From Pleodorina starrii (lineage: Eukaryota > Chlorophyta > Chlorophyceae > Chlamydomonadales > Volvocaceae), in assembly GCA_030267565.1 (NCBI GenBank), contig BRXU01000013.1, positions 1,590,001 to 1,654,000 on the forward strand: 64,000 nt of DNA, given 5' to 3'. The notes under the pieces were generated by a model. It was not told the DNA's origin, made no database searches, and saw only the letters and a program-made list of their open reading frames with translations. A program made the translations under genes and the position numbers. Positions 9,184 through 63,700 of this stretch are shown here, in pieces (the stretch's first letter is position 1; each line of letters opens with the position of its first letter).

Positions 9184-12100
9184 ATGCAAGTATCCATCCT
9201 TGACGCCACGTCGCTGACGGGCCACAAACCCCGGTTGCAAGCAGCGACGACGCCACGACCATCTTCCTGGAGTCAACCGACCTCTTCCGGTCGTTCACTA
9301 TCGCACTGCAGCAACAAATTCCACAGCGCGCCGCGGTGGCGTCGAGTCCATTCGCGATGCGCCCAGCGGGCTGCCTCGGGCAACAGCGTGGACGCTACCG
9401 ACCCGGCGCAGCCCAGCACGTCCTACTCCTCACCGTCTGATGCAGCTCCCGTCACCGCCACGCGACGCAGCGCCATCCTCGCGCTCGCTGCCTCTGCGAG
9501 CGTCCCCACCTGTCTGTCTGGCAGTCCCGGCCCGGCCTCTGCCAGCAAGTTGCCCTTCCTGGACGCCGGCTGGGAGGCCCTGGGCGGCGGACCTGCCGAC
9601 CTGGTGTTCCCGGAGGAGTTCTTGGGGGGTGCGTGGAGGGGTTGCGTGGTTCCGGAGCGGGGGCCCGGCGAGGGGGCCCGGCGAGCGACGTCGGGCTCAC
9701 CGGTGTTGGGTGGCGGGTGGAGAGGGAGGGATGGGGGGAAGCGCTTGACTATGGCGGGTACATAGCATGGTGTGCGTGTTTAGGCGCGTGACCTGGTGTG
9801 GGGTTAGCCCTCCGCCTCCTCCTCCTCCTCCTCCTCCTGCAGCAGCAGCAGCAGCCTCTTTCGATTGCCTGGCGCTCTCGCCGAAACGAGCTACACAGCG
9901 ACACCCAGCGACCCCCAGCGACAACGCTACCCAAAGCCTGTGCTAGGCGGTGCGCGCGTCGCGCCGCCAGCCGCACCCCACCCGTCCCCACTGCCTCCAC
10001 CGCTGAGGTGTTACATGTGTGTGTGTGTGTGTGTATTGCCCCTCCGCCTCCCGCCCATGACCCATGATCCCCCCCACACACCCTTCGCTCGCTGCGACCC
10101 CGCCCCCATCATCGATACCTCGGGCCGCCCCTCGGTCGGTTGGTCGGCTGCCGTCTCGTACGACAGTGTGGGACGTGACCAGCGTGCTATCCCGGGTGGA
10201 GACACCGCTCGGCGAGGATGCCGTACCCAACCTGGCTGCCGTACGACGAGCCCAGCGGGAGGATCTGGATCACAAGACGTCGTACCAGGTGGCCTTTGTG
10301 CGCAACGGCGCCGGCAAGGTGGTGTACGACAGGCGATTCAACACGGCATCCATGCTGTCCATGTAGGTGTACGGCGAAACAATCCGCCCAATCCCGCTTT
10401 ACGTAATCCCTGCCGGGGTGCACGAGCTTAGGAACACTCACCCCCACCCCCGGGGCCGTCCCCCCGGGGCTCCACCAAGCTCATTAGTCAGCCCACGGCC
10501 CAACCGCTCGCAGCAACAGCCATCGGGTGCACAGCCCCCAGTACATGTGTACGGCCACTGAAGATGCCGTACTGTATTTGTCGTACAGGTACTACGACAA
10601 CACCATGTCCTTCACGGAGCGCATCCGGTGGAACATCGATGACCCCAATGTGCTCTCTCTGGCCATGCCGGTGAGTGAGTCGAGATGTTGCCTGAACAGG
10701 ACCCCGGTAACTCGCCCAAGCCACGTTCGATAACTGTCGGGCGGCAGCGACTGGACTTGACTCCTCCGGATGGGATCTCAGCTCTGCAGTACTTCTTTAA
10801 ATAAGCCATTGGACTACTCAATCTGGACTACGTTACAAATGGGCTTTTCGTGGTTTTCGTTTGGCTAATGTTGGTGCCTGGCACCCAGTACCAACCGGCG
10901 CAACCCAGTATCAGCGTGGCACACTGCACGCATACAACCCCGCCCCTCCCCCCTTCTCCTCCCGTCTCCCCCCCCCCACACACACACGCGGCTCAGGGCA
11001 TGTCGGTGCGCACGCGCGTCACTCGCCGGTCGGAGGACCTTCCGCAGCCGGATCGCATCGAGACGTCTGAGGTGCGGGGCGGGGCGAGGGTGACCGGTGG
11101 GTCTGTCCATAGTGCGGCGCAGTGCGATTGCGGTGCGGTGTCAGCCCGAAGGGAGGCGGACCGGTTTCAGGAGCGACAATGCGTTGGTGGGGGAGTTTCC
11201 CCTGGGAGGGAGGTAACGGTGGTTAACCAGTGGTAGCAAAGATGTGGTGAAGGGGCGAGGTCGGGCAGGGTCGGGCGCGCGCCACAGGGCCTTTGGATAG
11301 GAGCCCTCACCAGGATAGGAGCCGCCTCCCTTTCCCGCGCGTGCGCTCAGCAAGCTTGGTACTCACCCAAAACACCGTGTGTCTTTCTGTACTGCACACA
11401 GTACGTCGAATCGGTGTACGACAGCGGAGACGGCGGTGCGCCGCGCATCAAGGCCAGCCAATGCTTCACCAAGTACAAATGGCGATCCGCAGAGGTATGT
11501 GATTGGGGGGTGGTGTTCGGGGGGCCTGGAGGGTCTAGGGGTTCAGCAAATGTGCGGGTTTGTGCGTTTGCTCGTGTCCATAGGAACCCATAGGCCGGCC
11601 CATAGGCCGACCCATAGGCCGACCCGTAGGCCGGCCCATAGGCCGACCCATAGGCCGACCCGTAGGCCGACCCATAGGCCGACCCATAGGCCGACCCATA
11701 GACCGGCCCATAGGCCGACCCATAGGCCGACCCATAGGCCGACCCATAGGCCGACCCATAGGCCGACCCATAGGCCGACCCATAGGCCGACCCATAGGCC
11801 GACCCATAGGCCGACCCGTAGGCCGACCCGTAGGCCGACCCATAGGCCGGCCCATAGGCCGACCCGTAGGCCGACCCATAGGCCGGCCCATAGGCCGACC
11901 CATAGGCCGACCCGTAGGCCGACCCATACGCCGAACCGTAGGCCGACCCATAGGCCGACCCATAGGCCGACCCATAGGCCGACCCATAGGCCGACCCATA
12001 GGCCGACCCATAGGCCGACCCATAGGCCGACCCATAGGCCGGCCCATAGGCCGACCCATAGGCCGACCCATAGGCCGACCCATAGGCCGACCCATAGGCC

Positions 12101-14045
12101 GGCCCATAGGCCGACCCATAGGCCGGCCCATAGGCCGACCCATAGGCCGGCCCATAGGCCGACCCGTAGGCCGACCCGTAGGCCGACCCATAGGCCGGCC
12201 CATAGGCCGACCCGTAGGCCGACCCATAGGCCGGCCCGTAGGCCGACCCATAGGCCGACCCGTAGGCCGACCCATAGACCGGCCCATAGGCCGGCCCATA
12301 GGCCGACCCATAGGCCGGCCCATAGGCCGACCCATAGGCCCGCCTATGGGCCGACCCATAGGCCAACCCATAGGCCGACCCATAGGCCGACCCATAGGCC
12401 CGCCTATGGGCCGACCCATAGGCCAACCCATAGGCCGACCCATAGGCCGGCCCATAGGCCGACCCATAGGCCGACCCATAGGCCGACCCGTAGGCCGACC
12501 CATAGACCGGCCCATAGGCCGGCCCATAGGCCGACCCATAGGCCGGCCCATAGGCCGACCCATAGGCCCGCCTATGGGCCGACCCATAGGCCAACCCATA
12601 GGCCGACCCATATGCCGACCCATAGGCCCGCCTATGGGCCGACCCATAGGCCAACCCATAGGCCGACCCATAGGCCGGCCCATAGGCCGGCCCATAGGCC
12701 GGCCGATGGGCCGACCCATAGGCCGACCCGTAGGCCGACCCATAGGCCGACCCATAGGCCGACCCATAGGCCGGCCCATAGGCCGACCCATAGGCCGACC
12801 CATAGGCCGGCCCATAGGCCGACCCATAGGCCGACCCATAGGCCGACCCATAGGCCGACCCATAGGCCGGCCCATAGGCCGACCCATAGGCCGACCCATA
12901 GGCCCGCCTATGGGCCGACCCATAGGCCAACCCATAGGCCGACCCATAGGCCGACCCATAGGCCGACCCATAGGCCCGCCTATGGGCCGACCCATAGGCC
13001 AACCCATAGGCCGACCCATAGGCCGGCCCATAGGCCGGCCCATAGGCCGGCCGATGGGCCGACCCATAGGCCGACCCGTAGGCCGACCCATAGGCCGACC
13101 CATAGGCCGACCCATAGGCCGGCCCATAGGCCGACCCATAGGCCGACCCATAGGCCGGCCCATAGGCCGACCCATAGGCCGACCCATAGGCCGACCCATA
13201 GGCCGGCCCATAGGCCGACCCATAGGCCGACCGATAGGCCGACCCATAGGCCGACCCATAGGCCCGCCTATGGGCCGACCCATAGGCCAACCCATAGGCC
13301 GACCCATAGGCCGGCCCATAGGCCGGCCCATAGGCCGGCCGATGGGCCGACCCATAGGCCGACCCGTAGGCCGACCCATAGGCCGACCCATAGGCCGACC
13401 CATAGGCCGGCCCATAGGCCGACCCATAGGCCGACCCATAGGCCGGCCCATAGGCCGACCCATAGGCCGACCCATAGGCCGACCCATAGGCCGGCCCATA
13501 GGCCGACCCATAGGCCGACCGATAGGCCGACCCATAGGCCGGCCCATAGGCCGACCCATAGGCCGACCGATAGGCCGACCTGTAGACCTGCGCGTCGCTT
13601 TGGGTCTACTAGGGGTTGAGGGCATGGGCGGGTGTACGTGTGGATGCCGGTTCGCTCGTCGCGGTGTGGATGAGAACGCCTTCACGTGCGGGGGAGGAAA
13701 CGGTTTCAAGGTTGGTCGAGCAGTGTGCGTGTGTGTGCGTGTGTGTTTGCGCGTGTGTGTCTTTGTGTTGGTGTCCGACCGCTGTAACGAATGTCACGGA
13801 AGTACTGAACCCATCCGAATTAAACTGAGTTTCTCCGAATCCAACCGAATTGACCGCAGGCTGCCGCGCGCGACGCCGGGCCCGCCATCGTGGCTACCCA
13901 GGTTGTGTCGGATTACCTAACGCCGTACGACGGTGAGCAGCAGTACCTGATGGCAATGAACAAGCCGTACGCGCAGTACACGTACCGTATGTCATTCCGG
14001 CGGCCCGCCAACGCCAACGTCAACGCCGTCATCGCCGCGAGCTAA
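9184..14045 (+). CDS. Thylakoid-lumen protein, DUF6816-like family
   Basis: Probable soluble lumen protein of unknown function found in cyanobacteria and plastids. Exons: 9184..9628, 10167..10362, 10589..10670, 10997..11071, 11402..11494, 13860..14045; 358 residues, all phases agree. The N-terminus is Ser/Arg-rich, like a transit peptide. It is followed by a twin-arginine lumen signal (TRRSAILALAASASVP) and an ASA-type cleavage site before the mature start at SKLPFLDAGWEAL. The conserved body includes FPEEFLGVWDVTSVLSRVE, PLGEDAVPN, VVYDRRFNTASM, RTRVTRRSEDLPQPDRIETS and ASQCFTKYKWR, matching my recollection of the DUF6816 pattern. The family name is from memory and less sure than gene reality. 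The last intron is 2365 nt and is nearly filled by a minisatellite. A TGTAA polyadenylation-type word sits near 14664. Confidence 0.82.
11575..13585. repeat. 2 kb minisatellite, 12-bp unit CCCATAGGCCGA, in an intron
   Basis: About 165 copies of a 12-bp unit fill most of the last intron of the lumen-protein gene. Variants are CCCGTAGGCCGA, CCCATAGGCCGG and CCCATAGACCGG. Because 12 is divisible by 3, every frame stays open and yields spurious long ORFs with four-residue periods (for example PTHR, PIGR, AYGS, GRPM). Seven inverted units (CCCATAGG CCCG CCTATGGG) begin at 12331, 12391, 12559, 12619, 12895, 12967 and 13255; all spacings are multiples of 12. Longer blocks are duplicated, showing higher-order repetition. 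Confidence 0.97.
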
Positions 14046-48460: not shown

Positions 48461-51400
48461 ATGCTGACAGCCACCACCACACACCCCACCCCACTCCCCG
48501 CGTCCCCTCAGGAATGGTACCAATACAAATTCAATAAATCCAAGCTGCGGACAGCTTTGGAGGTGCGCCTCCCCGCGCGACGCACACGCCCACACCGCGC
48601 CATCGTCCTGCCCCTTTGGACCACCTGTCCCTCTCCCGCCCATCCCTCCCCCACCAGGCCATGAACACCCTCATGTCCGTCATATCAGTTTCCGTATATG
48701 TGTACGACACGTACGTCTCCATCGATGAGTTGGCACGTGTCATGTACCTGGTCTGCTCCATCACCTTCTCCGTGGAGTACGTGGCGAAGCTGTTGGCAGC
48801 GGATGACGTACTGTCGTACCTTTTCTGGGACTGGTCTCTGGTCGACATGGCAACCATCGTGTACGGCATCGCGTACTTTGTTGATCTGGGTCTGGGCACC
48901 GATCTGGGTTTCATCCGGCTGCTCAGGATCATCCAGGTGCGGATGCGGGTGCGGGTGCGGGTGCGGCGGGGGAGGTAGGAGAGGGCGTGCGCGGGAGGGC
49001 CGCAGGGCCCTCGGGGCGCTCAGGGCCCTTCAGGCCCCGGCTGCTGCGGCCCTCCTGTGGCAAGGCCACTCAGAATCATCCGGCCAGTGTGGGGTGGCCT
49101 CGCGTCCTCCGTGATCCTCCCGAAGGCTGGAACAGAAACAACCGGGGCGCCGGGGTGCCATCCCGTGGCGCGGTCCTTTCTTTGCTCTGTGCGCTGTGCT
49201 GTAATTGTACGGCATATCCTGGCCTCGTAGAATCCCCGCACCCCGGGCCGGCCCCTCTCCCAGGCCCGCGATGGCGATGCGTCCTGACTCGCAGCCCAAA
49301 CGTCCGGCTTCCCCTCCCCACCCCGCAGGTGGTGCGGCTGTGCAAGTCCGTCACGTTCATCGTACTGCAGTACACTCGCCGTACATCGCAGCCGATGCAG
49401 CTGGAGTACGTGCGGCGCAGCGCCGACCTGGCCGTTACGCTGGTGGCGGTGGTCTTCATCTCGGCCTGCGTCTTCTACGAACTCGAGGTGGTACGTGCAC
49501 TGTGGCTGGGCGGTACGAGTTCGCAAATGCGCCTGCGAGATCCCTAGTATGTAGTAGTATCCCCAGAATCGCCACAGTGTGGATTGGCTTCTGCGTCTTT
49601 CCGAGTGGCCGCCCCCTCCGTCTCCGCTGCGGTATCTTCTTTTTACCCCTCCGAAACCCAGCAATCCATATGGGTCATAGCGACTTGCGGCGCCGCGCCC
49701 TCCCCCGTCCCCCTCCTCGCCTCTCTCCGCTTCACCCTCAGGTCCAGGAGGACCTCTATCTGCACAACGCCATCTACTGGGCCTGCGTCACCATCTCCAC
49801 AATAGGATACGGAGACTACGCGCCGGAAACCGTCACGGGGCAGCTGTGAGTGGGGTGGGGGCGGGGGCGGGGGTGGGCCTCGGGATGGAGCTTTCGCGGG
49901 TTGACCCACTCCACTCCACCCCACGGAATCGTTTTCCTTACCCCTCCCCTGCCCACAGTCCCAGGCCGGGATGGGCTATGCCGCCAATGGACCGTCAGCC
50001 CGAGCCCCAACCGCCGCCGCCGCCGCCGCCACAGGCTCTTTCCGCTCATCATCATAATCGTGATCTTGATCCTGCCGCGCAAGATCTCCCACCTGTTCGA
50101 GGTGATGCAGGTGCGTGGGGAACACGCGTGCGTAACACACGTGGGAACGGTTTCGGAGGCGCGGTAGGGGGGTCAGCTGGGCGCGGGAAAGTCGGGTGCC
50201 ATACACGCTGCGCCGTCCGGCGCGGCGTAAGGAAGGAAGGCGGGGGCCAGCTCTCTCGGCGGCAGCCGGCGTGCTTAGGCACGGCAACGTCGCAGCACCG
50301 AAAGCGAGAAGGCGCGCCAGCGCCAGCGCAGGACGTCTTGCCCATTTTCCTGCCCGACCGGGCCGCCCGCTGTCGGCCTGATTCGGACCCGTCCTCCCGT
50401 CCGTGCTCCCCTCCTCCTTTGCCTAATCGGACGGTGCTGCTTCGCCCTCCCGTCCTCCCCTGGCCGCAACCACCCAGAACTTCAGTCGTTTCATCCGCCG
50501 TTCGCACCGCTCCCACCGCTTCGGCAAGCACGTGGTGCTGACGGGGCACGTCACCTCGCTGTCCGCCCAGACCTTCATAAGCGAGTTCTACCACCAGGGC
50601 AGGGGATACCAGGTGAGCGGGCGACCCGACCCACGGGTCGGTGGGTCAAATCATTTTCTTCCAAGAGGCGAGCCAACGGGACGGGATGACAAAGGGGCCG
50701 CCAGCCACGGGGGCAGTCGAGTACGGTAAACACAACAGCGCGACCCAACCAAAACCCACGCAAAACCAATCCTTCAAAACCCTAAAATCCTAAAACCCGA
50801 CCAATACCCTCCTAACACTTACCAACGCCCTCTGGGCCGGGGGATCAGGACATGGACGTGGTGCTTCTGTGCCCCTCCGATCCCGACCCGCCGCTCGTCA
50901 TCACAATGAACAACCCGCGCTGGGAGGACCGGGTCAAGTACCTCAACGGCTCGCCCTACCAAGCAGAGGTGGGTGGTGAAGCTCCTGCGTGCGTGCATGG
51001 CTGCGTGCTTGGGGCAGGGACCCCGCGGGCCCTTCTTGCCGCAGGAACGTAGGCGACCGAGAACCCATAAATGCCCCCCGCCGCTCCCCGCCTCGCGCCC
51101 AACAACCCAGGACCTTGCCCGCGCCGACACCGGCCGCGCACTTGCCGTGTTCGTGTTGGCTGACAAGTACTCGGCCGACCCGGCGGCGGAGGACAGCCGC
51201 ACGTTGCTGGCGGTGCTGGCGGTGGCGCAGTTCCTGCGGCAGTTCGCAGCGCCCGAGGACCTGCCGCCGCCGCGGGTGGTCAGCTGGAGCGCTACCAGCT
51301 GGAAGGGGAGGTACTGCCAGGTGGGTGTTGGGGGGGGTTAGGGGGTGATATGCTCCTTTATATAAAAATGAGTCAAGGAGCCAGGTAGTGCATATGCGTG

Positions 51401-51674
51401 TTGGGGGGGGGTATCAACGTATAGGCCGGAGCCCGTGAACGGCAAAGTGAGGGGCGGGCGGGGTGTCGGTGGGTCGGCGGGTCGGTGGTGGGGTCGATGG
51501 GTGGGTGTGTGGGTGGGTGTTCTTGGAAGCCCGCACAGGAAGCCCGTGCTGGCACATCGTCGTGTGTCTGTCTGTGCGGAGGCTTGCGGCCCGTGCTGGT
51601 TCGCCTGCTCCGCTTGCCCTCTCGCCTGCCTGTCCCGTCTGACCACCCGACCGCCCGCCCGCCTTGATTGCGCG

Positions 51675-51737
<63 letters not shown>

Positions 51738-54700
51738 ATCGCCCCCGCCCCCTGCTGTGTCCCGGCAGTCCTCCGAGTCCAGCCACCCGCACATCATCGC
51801 CCAGTTCCTGCTGAACGAGACACTGGATCACGCCATTGCGCTGCTGCGCTCGGGCGCGAAGCACCCGCCGGAGATGGGACTCATACCGCTGGACGTCAGC
51901 CCCTTTCCCATGTGGGTCGGGGCTGGGGGGCAAGAGAGTTGGGGGCAAGAGAGTTGGGGGCGAGAGAGTTGGGGGCGAGAGAGTCGGGGGCGAGAGAGTT
52001 GGGGGCGAGAGCAAGCGAGCGAGTGGGCGGGTGGCTGGGAACCGTCGCGTCATGTGCGGTCAACTCGTCTCAAGTCATGTCATGTCATGTCTTCACATCT
52101 CATCTGTGATGACCAGGCGTCAGGCGGGGGGCCGCCGCCCTCATCGCCGCCTGTTTGCCACCGCCATTGCCGCCACTGCCGCCGACGCCGCCTGCCGTGA
52201 CCCTCACATGCCCCTTTCCCACCTCCTCCGTGGCTGTGGCTGTGCCTGCGGCCGTGTCGGTGTGTCCGTCTGCTTGCTGTGCCGCAGCTGCGTGGGCAGT
52301 CTGCGCGCCTCCCTGCTGGGCGCTGCGCTGCACACCCCCGGCCTCATCTCTCTGGTGACCAATCTGTGCATCAGCAGCTCACTGGGGAGGCGGAGGACGC
52401 TGATGGGCCACACAGAGGACGCGTCCATGGTGGGTGGATGGCTGGGTGGCTGGGTGGATGGGTGGGTGGGTGGGTGGATGGGTGGGTGGGTGGGTGGATG
52501 GGTGGGTGGGTGGATGGGTGGGTGGGTGGGTGGATGGGTGCGCCGCGAGCAGCGAGCCGTGGGCTGCGGAATAAAGGCTTGAGCAAGCCGCGAGCAAGTG
52601 GGGCGCCCCCCGGCGGGCCTTCGTGCTCCTCCTGGCCCTCCTCGCACGCCCACACAGTCATCTTGTGACCAGGTGGGGCCCGGGACCACCACCACCACCA
52701 CCACCACCACCACCACCACCACCATCACCAGCACTCCGCCAACGACCGACCAACCAACCCCTGCGCCGAGCCCCCTTCTCCCCGAGCTCCTCGCACCGAA
52801 TCCCGGCTCCAGAACCACGCACTCGACCCCTGCTCCTTCGCTGCGGGCTTTTCTTTCTTGGCTGGGCCCCTGCTCCCCCGCATGTCCCCTCGCTCAGCTG
52901 AGCAACTGCGGCTGGCTGTCCGAGTACCTGCGGGGGGCCAGCGTGGAGATCTACGACGTCGCCTTTCCCGAGGTAGGCGGGCCGGAGGGGGCTTGGCGCG
53001 TTGACCCTTGATCGAAAAGGCAGGCCGGAGAGGGAACCGACGCAGCGCCCTCGCTTTTGCCGCCCTTGGGTTTTGTCCCACCTCTGCTCTCCGCGATCCG
53101 CGGTCCGGCCCGTCCGGCCCGTCCGCAGCCCTTCTGGGGCCTCACCTTCAAGCAGGCGGCCCTCAAGCTGTGGCACGAGGAGGAGGTCATTCTCATCGGC
53201 GTGCGGCAGGCAAACCACCGCGACGCGGAGCAGAGGTACGTGGTGCGATGCGGTGTGGTGGGGTGCGGTGTGGTGCGGTGTGGCCTGCTCGGCATCCGCG
53301 GATCGGTCAGCGTGCCGCGGTGGCGTTCCGCGGTGGGTTTTGGGAGCGCAGAGCGCACCGCAGGACCGCACGAGGTGCCGGGGGCGGGGGCATCGGCTCT
53401 CGGCCCTCTCAGAAGCGCCCCTCTCACGTTTGGGACGTTGCCCGCTCCTCCCGTGACGGAGAAGAGACGGAGAGGGAGTCACAACTCCAGCCGCTGCCCT
53501 TACGACACACACACACGTACGCACGCACGCACACACACAAACTCCTTCATCATCCGCTGTTCGCTAAGCCACCAAGCCAAAAGCGCGGTTCTTTTCCTAA
53601 CAACGTGCCCCATATCGCAGCTTTGATGTCAAGTTGGCGCCCATGGGCGGCTGGGCGGCGGCGGCCGCGGGCAGTGGCTCTCGGGGGGCCACCGACGGTC
53701 AGCAGCTGTTGATTGATGGCAGCACACAGGGCTACATTCTGAGTGTGGACGCACTGGTGCTAGGCAGCGCTCCCCGCAGCCTCGTGAATGTGAGTGGCCG
53801 ACAACTCCCGTGAATGTGAGTGGCCGACAACTCCCGTGAGTTCCGGATCCCGTCGGAACTTGCTGCACCTCGGCTGCGCAGTTTTTGTACACATGTGTGC
53901 ATGTGCGTGCCCAACCTCCCCTGCTTCCATTCCTGGCTGTTCCTCATCCACTCCCTCTGCTGGCCCCGCCTTCTCTGACGAAGGTCGTTACCTTTCCCAC
54001 CCCGGCCTTACCCACAGCCCTTGGAGGCACAGGACAAGGACGCGGCCATGCGGCTGAGCATGCTGTACCTGCGACACCAGCAACACCAGCAGCAGCAGCC
54101 GCAGCAGCAGCAACAAGGGCAGCAGCCGGGCGCCCGGCCGGCTCACTGGACAGAGGATCCAATCGCCGCCGCTGCCACCGCATGCACCCTGGACAGCGCA
54201 AACGGTGACGGGTGGGTGGGCGGCCCGCGGTCGCTTACTCCCGGGTGATTTCCCGGTCATGTGTAGGAAAGGTGGCCCACGGGCTGGCGCGCTCGGTGTG
54301 GGGTGTGCGCGATGTCGTTCCGTCGTCGGCACTGGGGGGCAAGCGCGCAACACCGGGGGGATATGAGCGACCAGCAACCGCGACACGGGGGCCCCTGCTC
54401 CACTTCCCGCGCTTCTGGTGCCTTTGGTTGCTGCATGTAGTACATGTTTGGCATTCCACCCCATACAACCGCCCTCCGGATTTTCTCTGATTCGATCCCG
54501 TTCACGGGCTCCGGCCTAAACGTGGATAACCCTCCGTAGTGAGCTGCTGGCGGGCGACGGCCGCACCCTCGGGACGTCCACCGCCTACTGCACGCCCCTC
54601 CGGACGCCCCTGGGATCCCTCAACGATCTCACCGAAGGCGGCCCCGCCGTCGCCGTCGCCGGGGGTCCCTTTGGCGCGGCAACTGTCTCCGCCATCGCCG

Positions 54701-57700
54701 CCGCAGCCACGACCGCAGACGACGTTGGCGGCGACGGCAGCGGCGGCGGCGGCGATGGCGCCGCTTCGCTCGTCACGCCGGCCCCGTCCGGCACCGCCAG
54801 TGTCAGCGCCATTGCGGACGCGCCGACGGTCCAAGTGGCGGTCTACTCGGCGCGGCAGCAGGCGCAAAGTATGTGGCTGACGTGAGTAGCGGGGTACGTG
54901 GATGGTGGGGTTTTTCGATCGGCTTGCTAGGAGAGTCCCGGGCGGGCTGGTAAGAGGACCGGTAAGCGGTAACCAAACGAAAAGACGGCCAGCGGACGAA
55001 TGATGACCCCTCTCCTCTCCTCTCTTCCGTCGCTGCGGTTTCTTGCTTTACGGTATTAATGACCCCTCCGTTCGCCGGACCGCAGCGCCTCCGGTCACGC
55101 CACATGGCTGGCCCGCCAGTCAATGCTGGTGGCGAAGATGCTCTCCGGACGGTACCCGGCTCCGGAGAACGGCAGCGCCCACAGCGTCGAGGCTGCCATC
55201 GGAAGCGGCGGCAGCGCCGCCGCCTCTCCGGAGCCCCACGCCACGCTGCGCCGCAGCTTTCCCGCCGACGCGCGCCAGCGGTCCACGCTCTCTCGGAGGG
55301 TGTCGTTCAGGGACGTCGCCGCCGCCGACGGCCCCGGCTTGAGCGCCGGCGGCGGCGGCTGCGGCGGCGGCGGCCTCGGCGTGGCCACCAGCACCCGGCG
55401 GCAGCAGGGCATGAAGGCAGCGACGCGGCTGCCAGACCTCCACGCGCTAGCCGCCGTCAGCAGTTTCAGCTACCGGCGAGCGACGGAGCGACGGGCGACG
55501 CGGCAGGCGACGGCGCGGCGTGGTGATGGGCCAACACCGGCGTCGGCGTCGGAATCGGCATCAGCATCGGGCTCGGGCTCGGGTTCAGGCTCGGCGAGCT
55601 ATGACTCGGCGGATTCAGACCCGGGGAAGCGAGGCGGTGGCGGTTCGGAGGGCGAGGGGCCGCCGCGGGTGCAGCGGCAGGCGTCGTGGCGGCGGCAAAG
55701 GCGGTGGCGGCCGACGCGGGAAGGTAGGGGGAGGGGGGCCGCCGTGCGGCGGCGCGGTTGGAGGAGCCGGAGATGAGCGGGGCAGTGGTTACCGCGCCTG
55801 CGCGCCTGCCCAGCCCTTGCGTGCAACGTACAGCTGATGGGTCAGCCTGCTAGCTTCAGCCATGGCTGTGAGCTCCATCCGTGCCTGCATGCTTCCTGTT
55901 TTCTCCCTACTCCGCCTTGGACCAAGTCGCTCCCGCGGCCTGCCATCACGGCCCCCACCTCCCGGCCGCCCGCCCGCTCTCCCGACGTGCCTCGGCCGCT
56001 GCTGCCATTCCCTTCCCCAGGAGAGCCGGATCCGCCACCGCAGCCGCCACCGCAGCCGCCGCCACCATCGCCGCCGCCGCTGCAGCAGCAACAGCGAACC
56101 CCGGAGTGTCGGCGACCTCGCGTCGTGGACACCTTCGCGGGCGGCCCTCCTCTGGACTCGCCGGTGCTCGTCATGGGCAGCAGCTGCTTCGTGCAGCTGG
56201 TGGGGGTGGTGGGGGCCATCCGCTCGGCGCCGCCCGTGGGCTTCGCGCGGAGCTTCCGCACTCGCACGATTGTCATCCTGGATGACGGCACCGAGGAAAA
56301 GGTGGGTCGTGGCGTGTGGGGAAGGGGAGAAGGGGGAGGGGGTATGTGAGCCGATGCAGCGCTGGTGAGAAAATGCAAGTGAAGTTCTGTGCAGGGAAGT
56401 TGGCTGTTGGCTGTATGTGTTGGTGAATGGGTGGGTGGATGGCGGTTACGTGGCGTAGGAAGGGTGGCGTGCAGGGCGGGCCGGGCCGGGCCGGGCCGTT
56501 TTCTATTACCCCCCTGGGATTGAGTCGGGCTCCGCCCCGCTCCGGCCCCACCCCTCCATACCAGTGCCACACAACACGTGTGCAGGCGCGACCTCACACG
56601 ACCTGCTGCCGCCGCTTGCCACGCCTCCTGCCCAGGCGGCCCTCAGCGACAACCAGCTGGCGGCGCTGGGGTCCCTCCCGGGAGCCATTCCCGACCGGAT
56701 CTTCATGCTGAGGGCCAACCCCCTGGATGCAGCGGACCTGGAGAAGCTCAACCTCAAACCACACGGCTCGGTGGGTGGACGGGGGCGGGTGGACACAAGT
56801 AGATGGGTGGGTGGGTGGGCGTGGGTGGATGGCAGGGTTGCTGGGTTGTATCTCTTGAGTGTATCGCTCTACGAAGATACACGCCCGAGTCCACGCTAAG
56901 GTTCCGGCTGGGTATCACGCATCAGCTCGCCTGCTTTCCGTAACCCTCTCTGTGCCCCTCCGTACGTGCTCCTCCGCACCCCTCACCGTGCGCTGACTGA
57001 CTGGCAGGTGGCGGCGCTGCTGGTCCCCAGCCGAAAGCTGTTTACGGAGGAGGCGGTGGCGGGCTCCGCACCAGCACTGGCGGATGGGCAGATGCTGGTG
57101 GCGGCGGCGGCGCTGCGGCGGTACTGCCAGGAGGTCCGTGTGGGGGCTTCATACCGGCCTGTGCCCGCGGGTACCGCGCGGTATCACGTCTGCAAACCTT
57201 GCTCGGTGCCCGGGCCACCCGTGCATCTCCACGCCGTCGTGTATGTACCGGTCGTCCGTTGGGGCCATTAATTAGCGTTTCGTTTCATCTTCGTCGCTGC
57301 ACTACACTGTGCATTCTTGTCCAGCTACCGCAGACCCGCATGTCAGCAGCCCTTCAAGGCATGTTATTTTTAGATTGAAGCACCACCGTGCCGCAAACCC
57401 CCTCCCTCGGCCCCCTCCCGTGCTCGCTGCCCCTCCCTGCGTCACCAGATGGACTGTGAGCTTCGAGTGGTGGCGGAGGTATTGGCCCTGCTCAACTGCT
57501 CGTACGCGCTGCCGCTGTGCCTGGCAGAGGGACCCTACCACCACCATCACCGCCACCGGCACAGCCACCACTCGTCAAACAAGTTGGAGAGGGTGCGGCT
57601 TCCTTGTTGTGGTTCTTGCATGTTTGTGTTGTTGTAGTGGTTTTGGTCCTGTGTTTTGCTGCAATCGTCACGGTTCAGATATTGTTCCATGGTGGGGTAC

Positions 57701-60700
57701 CAAACCTGAGAAGGAACCAAACTAGGCAAGGTCAGGTAAGGTCAGGTAAGGTCAGGTCATATGGTGGGGTAAGGTCAGGTCATATGGTCAGGTCAGGTCA
57801 TACGGTCAGGTCAGGTCATATGGTCAGGTCAGGTCATATGGTCAGGTCAGGTCATACGGCCAGGTCAGGTCAGGTCATACAGTCAGGTCAGGTCATACGG
57901 TCAGGTCAGGTCACACGGTCAGGTCAGGTCAGGTCATGCGGCCAGGTCAGGTCATACGGTCAGGTCAGGGCTAATGGTCAGGTCAGGTCATATGGTCAGG
58001 TCAGGTCAGGTCATACAGTCAGGTCAGGTCATACGGTCAGGTCAGGTCAGGTCATACGGTCAGGTCAGGTCAGGTCATATGGTCAGGTCAGGTCATATGG
58101 TCAGGTCAGGTCATACGGTCAGGTCAGGTCATATGGTCAGGTCAGGTCATACGGCCAGGTCAGGTCATATGGTCAGGTCAGGTCATATGGTCAGGTCAGG
58201 TCATATGATCAGGTCAGGTCATGCGGCCAGGTCAGGTCATACGGTCAGGTCAGGGCTAATGGTCAGGTCAGGTCATATGGTCAGGTCAGGTCATATGGTC
58301 AGGTCAGGTCATATGGTCAGGTCAGGTCATACAGTCAGGTCAGGTCATACGGTCAGGTCAGGTCAGGTCATACGGTCAGGTCAGGTCAGGTCATATGGTC
58401 AGGTCAGGTCATATGGTCAGGTCAGGTCATATGGTCAGGTCATACAGTCAGGTCAGGTCATACGGTCAGGTCAGGTCAGGTCATGCGGCCAGGTCAGGTC
58501 ATATGGTCAGGTCAGGTCATATGGTCAGGTCAGGTCATACGGCCAGGTCAGGTCATACGGTCAGGTCAGGGCTAATGGTCAGGTCAGGTCATATGGTCAG
58601 GTCAGGTCATACAGTCAGGTCAGGTCATACAGTCAGGTCAGGTCATACGGTCAGGTCAGGTCAGGTCATACGGTCAAGTCAGGTCAGGTCATATGGTCAG
58701 GTCAGGTCATATGGTCAGGTCAGGTCATACAGTCAGGTCAGGTCATACGGTCAAGTCAGGTCAGGTCATACGGTCAGGTCAGGTCATATGGTCAGGTCAG
58801 GTCATACGGCCAGGTCAGGTCATACGGTCAAGTCAGGTCAGGTCATACGGTCAGGTCAGGTCATATGGTCAGGTCAGGTCATATGGTCAGGTCAGGGATA
58901 ATGGTCAGGTCAGGTCATATAGTCAGGTCAGGTCATGCGGCCAGGTCAGGTCATACGGTCAGATCAGGGCTAATGGTCAGGTCAGGTCATATGGTCAGGT
59001 CAGGTCATATGGTCAGGTCAGGTCATACAGTCAGGTCAGGTCATACGGTCAGGTCAGGTCATACGGTCAGTCAGGTCAGGTCATATGGTCAGGTCAGGTC
59101 ATATGGTCAGGTCAGGTCATATGGTCAGGTCAGGTCATACAGTCAGGTCAGGTCATACGGTCAGGTCAGGTCAAGTCATACGGTCAGGTCAGGTCAGGTC
59201 ATATGGTCAGGTCAGGTCATATGGTCAGGTCAGGTCATATGGTCAGGTCAGGTCATACGGCCAGGTCAGGTCATACGGTCAGGTCAGGTCATACGGTCAG
59301 GTCAGGGCTAATGGTCAGGCCCTACCCTACCCTACCCTACCCTACCCTACCCTACCCTACCCTACCCTACCCTACCCTACCCTACCCTACCCTACCCTAC
59401 CCTACCCTACCCTACCCTACCCTACCCTACCCTACCCTACCCTACCCTACCCTACCCTACCCTACCCTACCCTACCCTACCCTACCCTACCCTACCCTAC
59501 CCTACCCTACCCTACCCTACCCTACCCTACCCTACCCTACCCTACCCTACCCTACCCTACCCTACCCTACCCTACCCTACCCTACCCCACCCTACCCCAC
59601 CCTCCGCTACCCTCCGCTACCCTCCGCTACCCTCCGCTACCCTCCCCTACCCTCCGCTACCCTCCGCTACCCTACCCTACCCTACCCTACCCTACCCTAC
59701 CCTACCCTACCCTACCCTACCCTACCCTACCCTACCCTACCCTACCCTACCCTACCCTACCCTACCCTACCCTACCCTACCCTACCCTACCCTACCCTAC
59801 CCTACCCTACCCTACCCTACCCTACCCTACCCTACCCTACCCTACCCTACCCTACCCTACCCTACCCTACCCTACCCTACCCTACCCTACCCTACCCTAC
59901 CCTACCCTACCCTACCCTACCCTGCCCTGCCCTGCCCTGCCCTACCCTACCCTGCCCTGCCCTGCCCTACCCTACCCTGCCCTGCCCTGCCCTGCCCTGC
60001 CCTGCCCTGCCCTGCCCTGCCCTGCCCTGCCCTGCCCTGCCCTGCCCTGCCCTGCCCTGCCCTGCCCTGCCCTGCCCTGCCCTGCCCTGCCCTGCCCTGC
60101 CCTGCCCTGCCCTGCCCTGCCCTGCCCTGCCCTGCCCTGCCCTGCCCTGCCCTGCCCTGCCCTGCCCTGCCCTGCCCTGCCCTGCCCTGCCCTGCCCTGC
60201 CCTGCCCTGCCCTGCCCCCTAAACCCTAATAACCCTAAAACCCTACCCCTAACCCTACCCCTACCCCTACCCCATACCCCATACCCCATACCCCATACCA
60301 CATACCCCATACCCCATACCCCATACCCCATACCCCATACCCCATACCCCATACCCCATACCCCATACCCCATACCCCATACCCCATACCCCATACCCCA
60401 TACCCCATACCCCATACCCCATACCCCATACCCCATACCCCATACCCCATACCCCATACCCCATACCCCATACCCCATACCCCATACCCCATACCCCATA
60501 CCCCATACCCCATACCCCATACCCCATACCCCATACCCCATACCCCATACCCCATACCCCATACCCCATACCCCATACCCCATACCCCATACCCCATACC
60601 CCATACCCCATACCCCATACCCCATACCCCATACCCCATACCCCATACCCCATACCCCATACCCCATACCCCATACCCCATACCCCATACCCCATACCCC

Positions 60701-63700
60701 ATACCCCATACCCCATACCCCATACCCCATACCCCATACCCCATACCCCATACCCCATACCCCTACCCCTTACCCCTACCCCTTACCCCTACCCCATACC
60801 CCTACCCCATACCCCTACCCCATACCCCTACCCCATACCCCTACCCCTTACCCATACCCCATACCCATACCCCATACCCCTACCCCATACCCCTACCCCA
60901 TACCCCTACCCCATACCCCTACCCCATACCCATACCCCATACCCCATACCCATACCCATACCGTTACCCCTACTTTTACCCCTACCATTACCCCTACCAT
61001 TACCCAAACCATTACCCCTACCATTACCCCTACCATTACCCCTACCATTACCCCTACCATTACCCCTACCATTACCCCTACCATTACCCATACCATTACC
61101 CATACCATTACCCATACCATACCACACCATTACCCATACCATACCATACCATACCATACCATACCATACCATACCATACCATACCATACCATACCATACC
61201 ATACCATACCATACCATACCATACCATACCATACCATACCATACCATACCATACCATACCATACCATACCATACCATACCATACCATACCATACCATACC
61301 ATACCATACCATACCATACCATACCATACCATACCATACCATACCATACCATACCATACCATACCATACCATACCATACCATACCATACCATACCATACC
61401 ATACCATACCATACCAGTCATGTCACATTAATTCATGTCACATAAAGCATGTGATGAAATATGTGTCAAAACTAAATCATGTCACATTACATGTGTCCAA
61501 GTGAATCATGTCAACATCATGCATGTTAGAGTTATGTCATATCCATGTCATGTCATATCATGACACATCTATCTCACATCACATCATGTCATATCATGTT
61601 CCATCACACCCCATGGCATCATATCATGCCACATCACATCACGTCGGGTCATGTCACATCAAAGCAAGTCATGTCACAGCACGGCACATCACCGGACAGG
61701 ATGGACAGGAAAGGACGGGTTGCAGGAACTGTTGCCGAAGTGAGGCATGATGAGTATTACAGTTTGGTGCCGTGCGATTAGTCGGCTTGCATGCATACCA
61801 GGCCCCATACCCTGCAGTATCGAGTTCCATTCGATTCCGTCCCTTGAGACGCCGTGCAGCACACAGCTGCGGGTCTTACATGGGGCGTGCTGAGGCCCAT
61901 GGATCGTTGTCCAGTGCATGTTAGATCAGAGGAGGTGGCAGCATTGGGGCCGGAGAGGGTGACATTTGGGGTGAAGCAGGGGTAATCATGGTTCAGTGGT
62001 GTAACGAATGGTAATGAATGGTAGTTTGGGCTGGGGATGGGGATATACCGGTAGGCCGCGCCCTTGGCTGGATACGAGCCGGTGATTCAAACCTAATGAA
62101 ATCCCCTCCTTGCCCTGTGATGTCTGCAACTCTGCATAGGCGGCACCGTACCCGCATGTGGAGGCTGACACGGGGCCTTGTGCTGGCCTGGGTGAGAGTA
62201 GCAACAGCGGCAGCCGCAGCAGCCGCGAGGTCAGATTCATAACAGACCCGCGGCCCGACTTCCGACGGGGAGTCCACAACTCGCTGCGAAGGTGGGTGGG
62301 TGAGGCGCAGGCGCGGACTCAGACCTCAGAGCTCAGACCTCAGAGCACTCATGCGTCACGTTTCCGTCTCGTGTCTCCAAACCCCCGGACTAATTTTGGG
62401 GCTGTCTTTCTGCCCCCAACCCAACCCAACCCAACCCGACGAACAGCTTTTCGGACTGTCTTCCTCGGACCTCCCGACCCCCCTCCCCCCCTCGCGCAGG
62501 CTGGGGCGGCAGTCGGACCAGGCCCGTCAGGAGGACTATGTGCAGCAAGTGCTGTCGGAGATGCCGCACCTGAGCCCCTCCCTGGCGCCCGGGCACATCC
62601 TCATGCAGACCTTCTTGGACGCCCTCACCTGCCAGGCAGGTCCTGATGTGTGTATGTGTGTGTTGGGGGGGGGTGCCAGCATGATAGCGCGGGTCCAGGC
62701 TCATGTGCACCCGGTCGGCAGGGAGGGATGCAAATACCGTAACGCACACGTAGATGCAGTGGGGAGGGACGCGCGGTTGGCCTGCGGGCGCCGGGCCTGG
62801 GCGCCGTCCGGGTTGTGACGGTTGGAAGAGAAAAAGGGTGTTTTTAGGGGGGGCGCTGTTGCGGCTGTTGCGGCTTCCGCTCTGCGCTGCTGCACCCACC
62901 ATCGCACCGGAAGACCGGATACGTCGCTCCCACGACACGTAAGCGTGCAGGCACTGCCTTGGCCGCTGCCCCGCACCCCCTTGTTCTCAATGCCGCTGCC
63001 CCAGACCCAGTCCCGCCTATCCTCCACCCTTCTCTCTTCCCTTTCCCCTGTTAACCGCTCCGCGCCCCTCAGAGCATCTTCAACCCCATGATGCTCCAGA
63101 TCCTTCTCAAGATGCTCAATTGCTGGGAGCTGACGTCGAGCGACCCGTGGGCCCGGCTGCAACGCCACCATGCGCACGCACACGCACACTTGCATCAGCA
63201 GGAACGGCAGCGGCGCCGCAGCCAGCCAAGACAGCAGCGCCAGGGGCTACCGCCCAGGCGCAGCCCTTGCAACGACCGGCCGCCACCTCCGGCCTTCGCC
63301 ACAGCCGCGGCTGCCGGGCCCGGTGAGCCACCGCAGCCGCAGCCAGCGGCGGCAGCAGGATCCTGGCCCGGACGAGCGCCCAACTCGCCGGCGTCGCTCT
63401 CCCATTCAGGTATGATTACGGAGGCAGCGCCGCTCAAGGTGTCACAGAGTGGCCGTATGGGTACGCCAGCCATAGCGCCCCAGCCGGCGGCGGCTGCCGC
63501 GGCCCCAGTCTCGACCGCGCCGTTCGTCAACCCGCAGCCCGCGCCTGCCTGGCTGCACGCAGCCAGCGAGCCGCTGTGGGCGTCGCCTCCGCCGCCGCCG
63601 TCGCCACCATCGCCGTCTGGCGGGCAGGGAACCGCAGGGGCTGACGACGCCGTGTCGCGGCCGGGGCGCTTGACCGGCGTCGGTCGATCCGGCGACGGCG

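What the first reader, a model, noticed from the sequence alone, without database searches (positions are those of the whole stretch)
57593..62139. A ladder of telomere-like arrays sits inside an intron of a potassium channel gene
Seen: between the in-phase exons 57449..57592 and 62140..62291 lie consecutive arrays of an 18-bp satellite, (CCCTA)n, (CCCTG)n, degenerate CCCTAAAA-type units, (CCCCATA)n, mixed units and (ATACC)n. Each neighbour can be derived from the previous one by one or two base changes, as if a telomeric seed had been inserted or healed and then amplified stepwise. Known: interstitial telomeric repeats can arise from end fusion or telomerase action at breaks. Inference: the intron must be transcribed through about 3 kb of C-rich RNA with a G-rich template strand, which could slow polymerase or regulate the channel.
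Basis: partly seen in the sequence, partly recalled or inferred. Interest (0 to 1): 0.85.

Follow-up and report, generated by a model that had tools for sequence, protein, structure and literature searches.

The report
Intronic repeat ladder, mostly not telomeric
An intron of a potassium-channel gene in a colonial green alga is filled with neighbouring short repeats that mostly are not the alga's telomere sequence; similar stepwise repeat ladders occur elsewhere in the same genome, so this looks like satellite DNA growth, with a small telomere-like patch that may or may not have helped to start it.

Summary
The arrays are real and the coordinates right. The genome matches Pleodorina starrii NIES-4479 (136,057,477 bases, 95 contigs). 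The gene is an SLO/BK-type K+ channel; a Volvox africanus predicted protein runs without a break across the 4,547-b intron.

Most of the ladder is not telomeric. The genome's telomere is (CCCTAAAA)n. (CCCTG)n is abundant genome-wide, the reversed unit of (CCCTA)n is commoner than (CCCTA)n, and the first array is a dispersed 18-bp satellite. One-register ladders of the same kind occur elsewhere, for example (CCATA)n to (CCATG)n in a dihydroorotase intron.

What remains is a patch of about 25 b (60217-60241) with telomere-like units of 7, 9 and 8 b. Such patches are dispersed (203 sites, 1 in the reversed control). One other locus (L030, with a copy L032) mixes CCCTAA, CCCCATA and CCCTAAAA units, so a telomeric seed for the CCCCATA half stays possible (0.22).

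Best explanation: slippage or unequal exchange of mutated units in a spliced intron. No function is shown.

The parts
48512..62639 (+). SLO/BK-type potassium channel gene, modelled part (12 exons placed by hand; further exons lie between 51320 and 57008 and 3' of 62639)
   Evidence: PDB sequence search E 8.3e-27 to potassium channel subfamily T member 1 and 1.8e-23 to calcium-activated potassium channel subunit alpha-1; V. africanus P0001 by tblastn
57449..57592 (+). exon upstream of the repeat intron
   Evidence: splice-site edges; P0001 aa 1249-1311
57593..62139 (+). 4,547-b intron that holds the arrays
57730..59319 (+). 18-bp satellite GGTCAGGTCAGGTCATAT, 88 copies, member of a dispersed GGTCA family
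   Evidence: 57 matches including itself on 10 contigs, the others 68-88% identical (39 of 127 candidates scored; contigs recounted)
59320..59919 (+). (CCCTA)n with a CCCTC-CGCTA block at 59600-59669
   Evidence: unit parse
59920..60214 (+). (CCCTG)n, interleaved with CCCTA at 59940-59949 and 59965-59974, same 5-b register
   Evidence: unit parse
60217..60267 (+). seam with telomere-like units CCCTAAA, CCCTAATAA, CCCTAAAA, then CCCTA/CCCCTAA/CCCCTA
60268..60763 (+). (CCCCATA)n, 463-b perfect run; no other place in the genome has nine perfect units
60764..61133 (+). mixed units: CCCCTACCCCATA (13 b), TTACCCCTACCA and TTACCCATACCA (12 b)
61134..61416 (+). (CCATA)n, 283-b perfect; one other place with 12 perfect units in the genome (C5)
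61506..61692 (+). degenerate CATGTCA/ACATC-type repeat related to (GACAT)n on C10 and (ATGTG)n on C24
   Evidence: 14 further matches, 72-79% identity; arrays named
62140..62291 (+). exon downstream of the repeat intron
   Evidence: P0001 aa 1296-1334 matched to 62176-62292

Best explanation
The intron is a site of satellite DNA growth in a genome where short-period arrays grow readily. A copy of a dispersed GGTCA-type 18-bp satellite and one or more C-rich short repeats arose or were inserted in the intron. Point mutations in single units (A to G, C to G, inserted C or A) were then spread by replication slippage or unequal exchange, giving neighbouring blocks that differ by small steps. The short CCCTAAA/CCCTAAAA patch is one of about 200 dispersed telomere-like patches and most likely a bystander. 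The intron is spliced out and the arrays have no demonstrated role. Shown: arrays, register, gene, orthologue join, genome-wide relatives, parallel ladders. Inferred: slippage/exchange, direction of change, splicing in P. starrii itself.
For: CCCTA and CCCTG alternate in one register over 179 units without an indel, and a variant pair (CCCTC-CGCTA) is itself amplified. The same pattern, CCATA to CCATG with CCGTG variants over 47 units in one register, lies in an intron of a dihydroorotase gene. The 18-bp satellite abuts a 398-b (ACCTC)n array on C34 (L019); multi-array loci on C10 and C24. (CCCTG)n: 6,390 overlapping 60-b hits. 18-bp satellite: 57 matches. Telomere unit (CCCTAAAA)n, control 0. 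Telomere-like patches also sit in introns without arrays: 50776-50797 in the same gene. V. africanus and T. socialis predicted proteins continue across the intron position.
Against: (CCCCATA)n and long (CCATA)n are unique or nearly so, and 1 of 15 sampled stretches had any array of 1 kb or more, so the locus is unusual in extent. A Markov model of the flanking arrays, seam left out, makes CCCTAAA in at most 0.2% and CCCTAAAA in none of 1,000 simulations. L030 5899-6004 and its copy L032 mix CCCTAA, CCCCATA, CCCCAAA and CCCTAAAA units, which ties CCCCATA units to telomere-like ones. Predicted protein P0004 has about 200 residues where the model has about 55 across the intron position, cause unknown.
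Confidence: 0.7

Rival explanations
1. Telomere-seeded ladder: a short interstitial telomeric tract (CCCTAAAA)n was inserted, for example at a healed break, and its degenerate units were amplified into CCCCTA/CCCCATA/CCATA on one side and perhaps CCCTA/CCCTG on the other. (Odds raised from 0.12 to 0.22 on rechecking, because of L030.)
For: Seam 60217-60241 has three telomere-like units between the two halves of the C-rich block. CCCTAAAACCCTA followed by a non-A: 203 sites, 1 in the reversed control. L030 5899-6004 mixes CCCTAA, CCCCATA, CCCCAAA and CCCTAAAA units about 0.8 kb from a (CCCTA)n run; L032 is a copy, so this is one independent case. C3:785658 also runs from CCCTAAAACCCTA straight into CCCTACCC.
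Against: Only 3 places in the genome, this one included, have CCCTAAAACCCTAC with CCCTACCC within 30 b downstream (other forms and the upstream side were not tested). C1 interstitial blocks keep the 8-b register while seam spacing is 7, 9, 8, 6, 6, 6, 6. CCCTG arrays are common genome-wide. The 18-bp array is not derivable. The test of CCCTAA beside CCCCATACCC genome-wide did not complete.
Confidence: 0.22
2. Regulatory intron: the C-rich nascent RNA and G-rich template slow RNA polymerase or form G-quadruplexes and set channel expression or splicing.
For: G-quadruplex motifs cover 1,628 b of the minus strand in 2 regions; the C-rich 2,097 b has no AG and one GT on the sense strand.
Against: Conservation could not be tested and no expression data were available. 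The neighbouring 18-bp array has 194 AG and 251 GT. In the dihydroorotase intron the sense strand is the G-rich one (exons of L056 on the minus strand), so no strand rule holds.
Confidence: 0.05
3. Assembly artefact: unrelated arrays were joined by gap filling.
For: The assembly merged contigs of two assemblers and was gap-filled (TGS-GapCloser, pilon; PMC10256686 section 14).
Against: PacBio reads are usually longer than 4.5 kb (recalled, not checked for this data set); block borders interleave; flanking exons match one orthologous protein.
Confidence: 0.03

Closest known systems
Intronic micro/minisatellite (short-period tandem array) clusters
   Same: Short units, perfect runs, neighbouring variants in one register, inside an intron
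   Different: Several array types side by side over 3.7 kb; 14 of the 15 stretches sampled had no array of 1 kb or more
Interstitial telomeric sequences (short ITS class as described in PMC6410037, passages seen)
   Same: A three-unit telomere-like patch at 60217-60241; C-rich/G-rich strand asymmetry
   Different: The arrays have 5- and 7-b units, not the 8-b CCCTAAAA unit of this genome
Dispersed GGTCA-family satellite of this genome
   Same: 57730-59319 is a member; on C34 it also abuts a C-rich 5-b array, (ACCTC)n (L019)
   Different: Here the neighbours are CCCTA, CCCTG, CCCCATA and CCATA
SLO-family (BK/Slack) potassium channels
   Same: TIGYGD pore motif and membrane/RCK1 part matching potassium channel subfamily T member 1 and calcium-activated channel subunit alpha-1
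   Different: The C-terminal half is recognisable by volvocine orthologues, not by PDB sequence search

Membership tests
Interstitial telomeric sequence | array of the species' own telomere unit | tested here: not met
   Telomere unit CCCTAAAA; no run of two perfect CCCTAAAA or CCCTAAA units between 57000 and 62200
Interstitial telomeric sequence | short or degenerate telomere-like stretch inside a chromosome (short ITS) | tested here: inconclusive
   Only the seam 60217-60241: one CCCTAAA, one CCCTAATAA, one CCCTAAAA; genome-wide excess of such words
Tandem repeat array evolving by slippage/unequal exchange | head-to-tail units with variant units spread locally | tested here: met
   One register, interleaved and amplified variants; the process itself is inferred
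Dispersed 18-bp satellite | further arrays of the same unit on other contigs | tested here: met
   57 matches on 10 contigs
SLO-family K+ channel gene | pore signature and RCK domain with significant similarity | tested here: met
   TIGYGD at 49799; E 8.3e-27 to potassium channel subfamily T member 1
SLO-family K+ channel gene | the two flanking exons belong to the same protein | tested here: met
   V. africanus P0001 and T. socialis P0003 predicted proteins run across; P0004 has a longer stretch there
Spliced intron in P. starrii | RNA reads joining 57592 to 62140 | not testable with these tools
   no RNA-seq held

The most novel reading that the evidence does not exclude
A short telomere-like patch inserted in a channel intron acted as the seed from which C-rich arrays spread by stepwise unit change, leaving a readable record of an interstitial telomere turning into new satellites; L030, with mixed CCCTAA, CCCCATA and CCCTAAAA units, would be an earlier stage of the same process.
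Probability: 0.22. Interest if true: 0.55.

Novelty: new member of a known kind. Interest (0 to 1): 0.33.

Why it matters
It corrects a tempting telomere reading and shows that in this volvocine genome short C-rich units grow and mutate stepwise inside genes. Such graded, one-register ladders can be compared between the male, female and bisexual P. starrii assemblies to time array turnover. If the telomere-like patch proved to be the seed, this would be a readable record of an interstitial telomere becoming a satellite.

Tried and rejected
Telomere origin of the whole ladder: rejected on the genome's own unit, the reversed-unit control, the unrelated first array and the parallel ladders. The reversed-pattern control is meaningless for CCCCATA and CCATA, whose reversal is a rotation of the same unit. 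Closeness of neighbouring units as proof of descent: not significant by itself (13.6% of random unit sets). A Markov model trained with the seam included makes CCCTAAAA in 17-33% of 1,000 simulations at orders 2-3 and 0% at order 1; with the seam left out it makes none at orders 1-3 (one search was an earlier run with the seam included). A strand rule (C-rich arrays on the sense strand of introns) was suggested by L030, L032 and L034 and contradicted by L056; not pursued. Pfam on 10 single ORFs found one sub-threshold BK_channel_a match. PDB search with the C-terminal half found no channel; best hit an enolase at E 0.0049, aligned from a His-rich part on. Literature: the listings of searches showed no title or abstract start about nuclear intron repeat ladders in Pleodorina; one search had no hits. 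PMC8226300 seen as passages, PMC10256686 as passages and section 14 whole, PMC6410037 as passages; other papers as listings only.
Full report
Where it is. The window is C13:1590001-1654000 of a 136,057,477-base, 95-contig genome. This equals the published bisexual Pleodorina starrii NIES-4479 assembly (95 contigs, 136.1 Mbp; PMC10256686, passages); the identification rests on these two numbers and on volvocine orthologues. The paper's Results passage speaks of high-fidelity PacBio reads; the methods section describes flye and NextDenovo assemblies, merged and gap-filled.

The gene. The plus strand codes for an SLO-family K+ channel: pore motif TIGYGD at 49799; the membrane-to-RCK1 translation matches potassium channel subfamily T member 1 (E 8.3e-27) and calcium-activated potassium channel subunit alpha-1 (1.8e-23) among PDB sequences. 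The protein search returned 2 proteins: V. africanus P0001 (1,658 aa) and Gonium pectorale P0002 (636 aa). P0001 matches in mostly collinear pieces from 48503 to 63618, with a few stray low-complexity pieces, and includes 57446-57607 (aa 1249-1311), 62176-62292 (aa 1296-1334) and 62495-62638 (aa 1333-1380). A second search with the C-terminal half returned 2 proteins, P0003 (Tetrabaena socialis) and P0004 (JGI, unnamed). P0001 and P0003 run across the intron position; P0004 has about 200 residues there where my model has about 55. All are predicted proteins, and neither search returned a P. starrii protein. The C-terminal half alone had no channel match in PDB sequences. I take the exon pair as one gene by homology, not by RNA.

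The arrays. Reading 5' to 3' on the sense strand: the 18-bp satellite (57730-59319), the 5-b register block CCCTA/CCCTG (59320-60214), the seam (60217-60267), CCCCATA (60268-60763), mixed 13- and 12-b units (to 61133), CCATA (61134-61416), then a degenerate repeat (61506-61692). The 5-b block has 179 units with no indel: 109 CCCTA, 55 CCCTG, 7 CCCTC, 6 CGCTA, 2 CCCCA, with CCCTG and CCCTA alternating at the border. That is local descent. The first 1.6 kb is G-rich on the sense strand and 2,097 b are C-rich.

Is it telomeric? The genome's telomere is (CCCTAAAA)n: 333 overlapping hits of a six-unit pattern, 0 for its reversal, and C2 begins with 681 b of it. Interstitial blocks on C1 keep that unit (L035, L036). 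(CCCTA)x7 has 180 overlapping hits, its reversal 675. Only the first 100 places were listed; of the five other loci seen, two are copies of one stretch (197 of 198 50-mers shared). The longest perfect runs there are 45-70 b, against 268 b here. (CCCTG)x12 has 6,390 hits, its reversal 264. (CCCCATA)x9 occurs only here, (CCATA)x12 here and on C5. The 18-bp satellite has 57 matches including itself on 10 contigs, a lower bound. The border CCCTAx3-CCCTGx3 occurs twice, here and on C10, and its reversal once.

Parallel ladders. On C5 (L056) 47 units go CCATA, then CCATG with CCGTG, in one register, between exons of a dihydroorotase gene on the minus strand (PDB match E 6.8e-39; exon places). On C10 (L055) a (GACAT)n array of about 550 b and a (CCCTG)n array of more than 1.8 kb lie about 400 b apart. 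On C24 (L013) six-base and ten-base C-rich units grade into one another. On C34 (L019) the 18-bp satellite abuts a 398-b (ACCTC)n array. In a sample of 15 stretches of 6 kb at round coordinates chosen by me, 2,849 of 90,000 bases lie in arrays of 100 b or more and 1 of 15 has an array of 1 kb or more. So the kind is ordinary here, the extent is not.

The seam. Starts of CCCTA are spaced 7, 9, 8, 6, 6, 6, 6. CCCTAAAACCCTA followed by a non-A occurs 203 times in the genome, its reversal once: telomere-like patches are dispersed and real. In its CCCTAC form, 3 places, this one included, have CCCTACCC within 30 b downstream; the one on C3 runs straight into CCCTACCC. A Markov model trained on the flanking arrays without the seam makes CCCTAAA in at most 0.2% of simulations and CCCTAAAA in none, so the patch is not a by-product of the arrays.

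Found on rechecking, and in favour of the rival: L030 5899-6004 (copy in L032) is a mixed array of CCCTAA, CCCCATA and CCCCAAA units ending in CCCTAAAACCCTG, about 0.8 kb from a (CCCTA)n run; a clean three-unit telomere patch lies further on. This ties CCCCATA units to telomere-like ones once outside the window, and I raised the telomeric-seed rival from 0.12 to 0.22 for it. Against it, telomere-like patches also sit in introns without arrays: 50776-50797 in this same gene, and L056 around 1390-1430 in the intron next to, not in, the one with its ladder. The short word CCCTAAA/TTTAGGG alone is common: 11 in the 90 kb sample.

How it works. The most likely account is neutral array growth: slippage or unequal exchange spreads mutated units, and the intron is removed by splicing. 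The C-rich part offers no AG and one GT on the sense strand, which may let it be tolerated; the G-rich 18-bp array, full of AG and GT, shows this is not a requirement. G-quadruplex motifs on the template cover 1,628 b, but an effect on transcription is only a possibility.

Noticed in passing
window 11586-13580: A second 2-kb array in the window, 12-b unit ACCCATAGGCCG (TRF periods 24 and 60).
   Followed up: no
L030 5899-6004 and its copy in L032: Mixed telomere-like array of CCCTAA, CCCCATA and CCCCAAA units ending in CCCTAAAACCCTG, near a (CCCTA)n run.
   Followed up: partly
L036 (C1:3587001-3597000): Five interstitial (CCCTAAAA)n blocks of 111-143 b spaced about 0.9-1.75 kb apart inside C1.
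   Followed up: no
C5:2796-28835: CCCTAAAACCCTAG recurs about every 3.7 kb, eight times, near the start of contig C5: likely a subtelomeric tandem repeat.
   Followed up: no
window 48563-62499, 10 introns of the channel gene: C exceeds G at the 3' end in 10 of 10 introns measured and G exceeds C at the 5' end in 7 of 10.
   Followed up: partly
L030 and L032: C1:4022001-4032000 and C7:1924501-1934500 are near-identical (197 of 198 50-mers of L030 found in L032): a recent duplication or dispersed element.
   Followed up: no
L030, L032, L034: (CCCTA)n runs end in CCCCGCAG|GG or CCCCAG|GC, as if serving as the polypyrimidine tract of a 3' splice site (the splice sites are my reading).
   Followed up: partly
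window 50776-50797; L056 around 1390-1430: Telomere-like patches in introns without arrays.
   Followed up: partly
L037 (C1:9397001-9407000): About 1.24-kb units with inner 72-, 33- and 18-bp repeats, four times, with (CCCTAAAA)n matches at two places among them.
   Followed up: no
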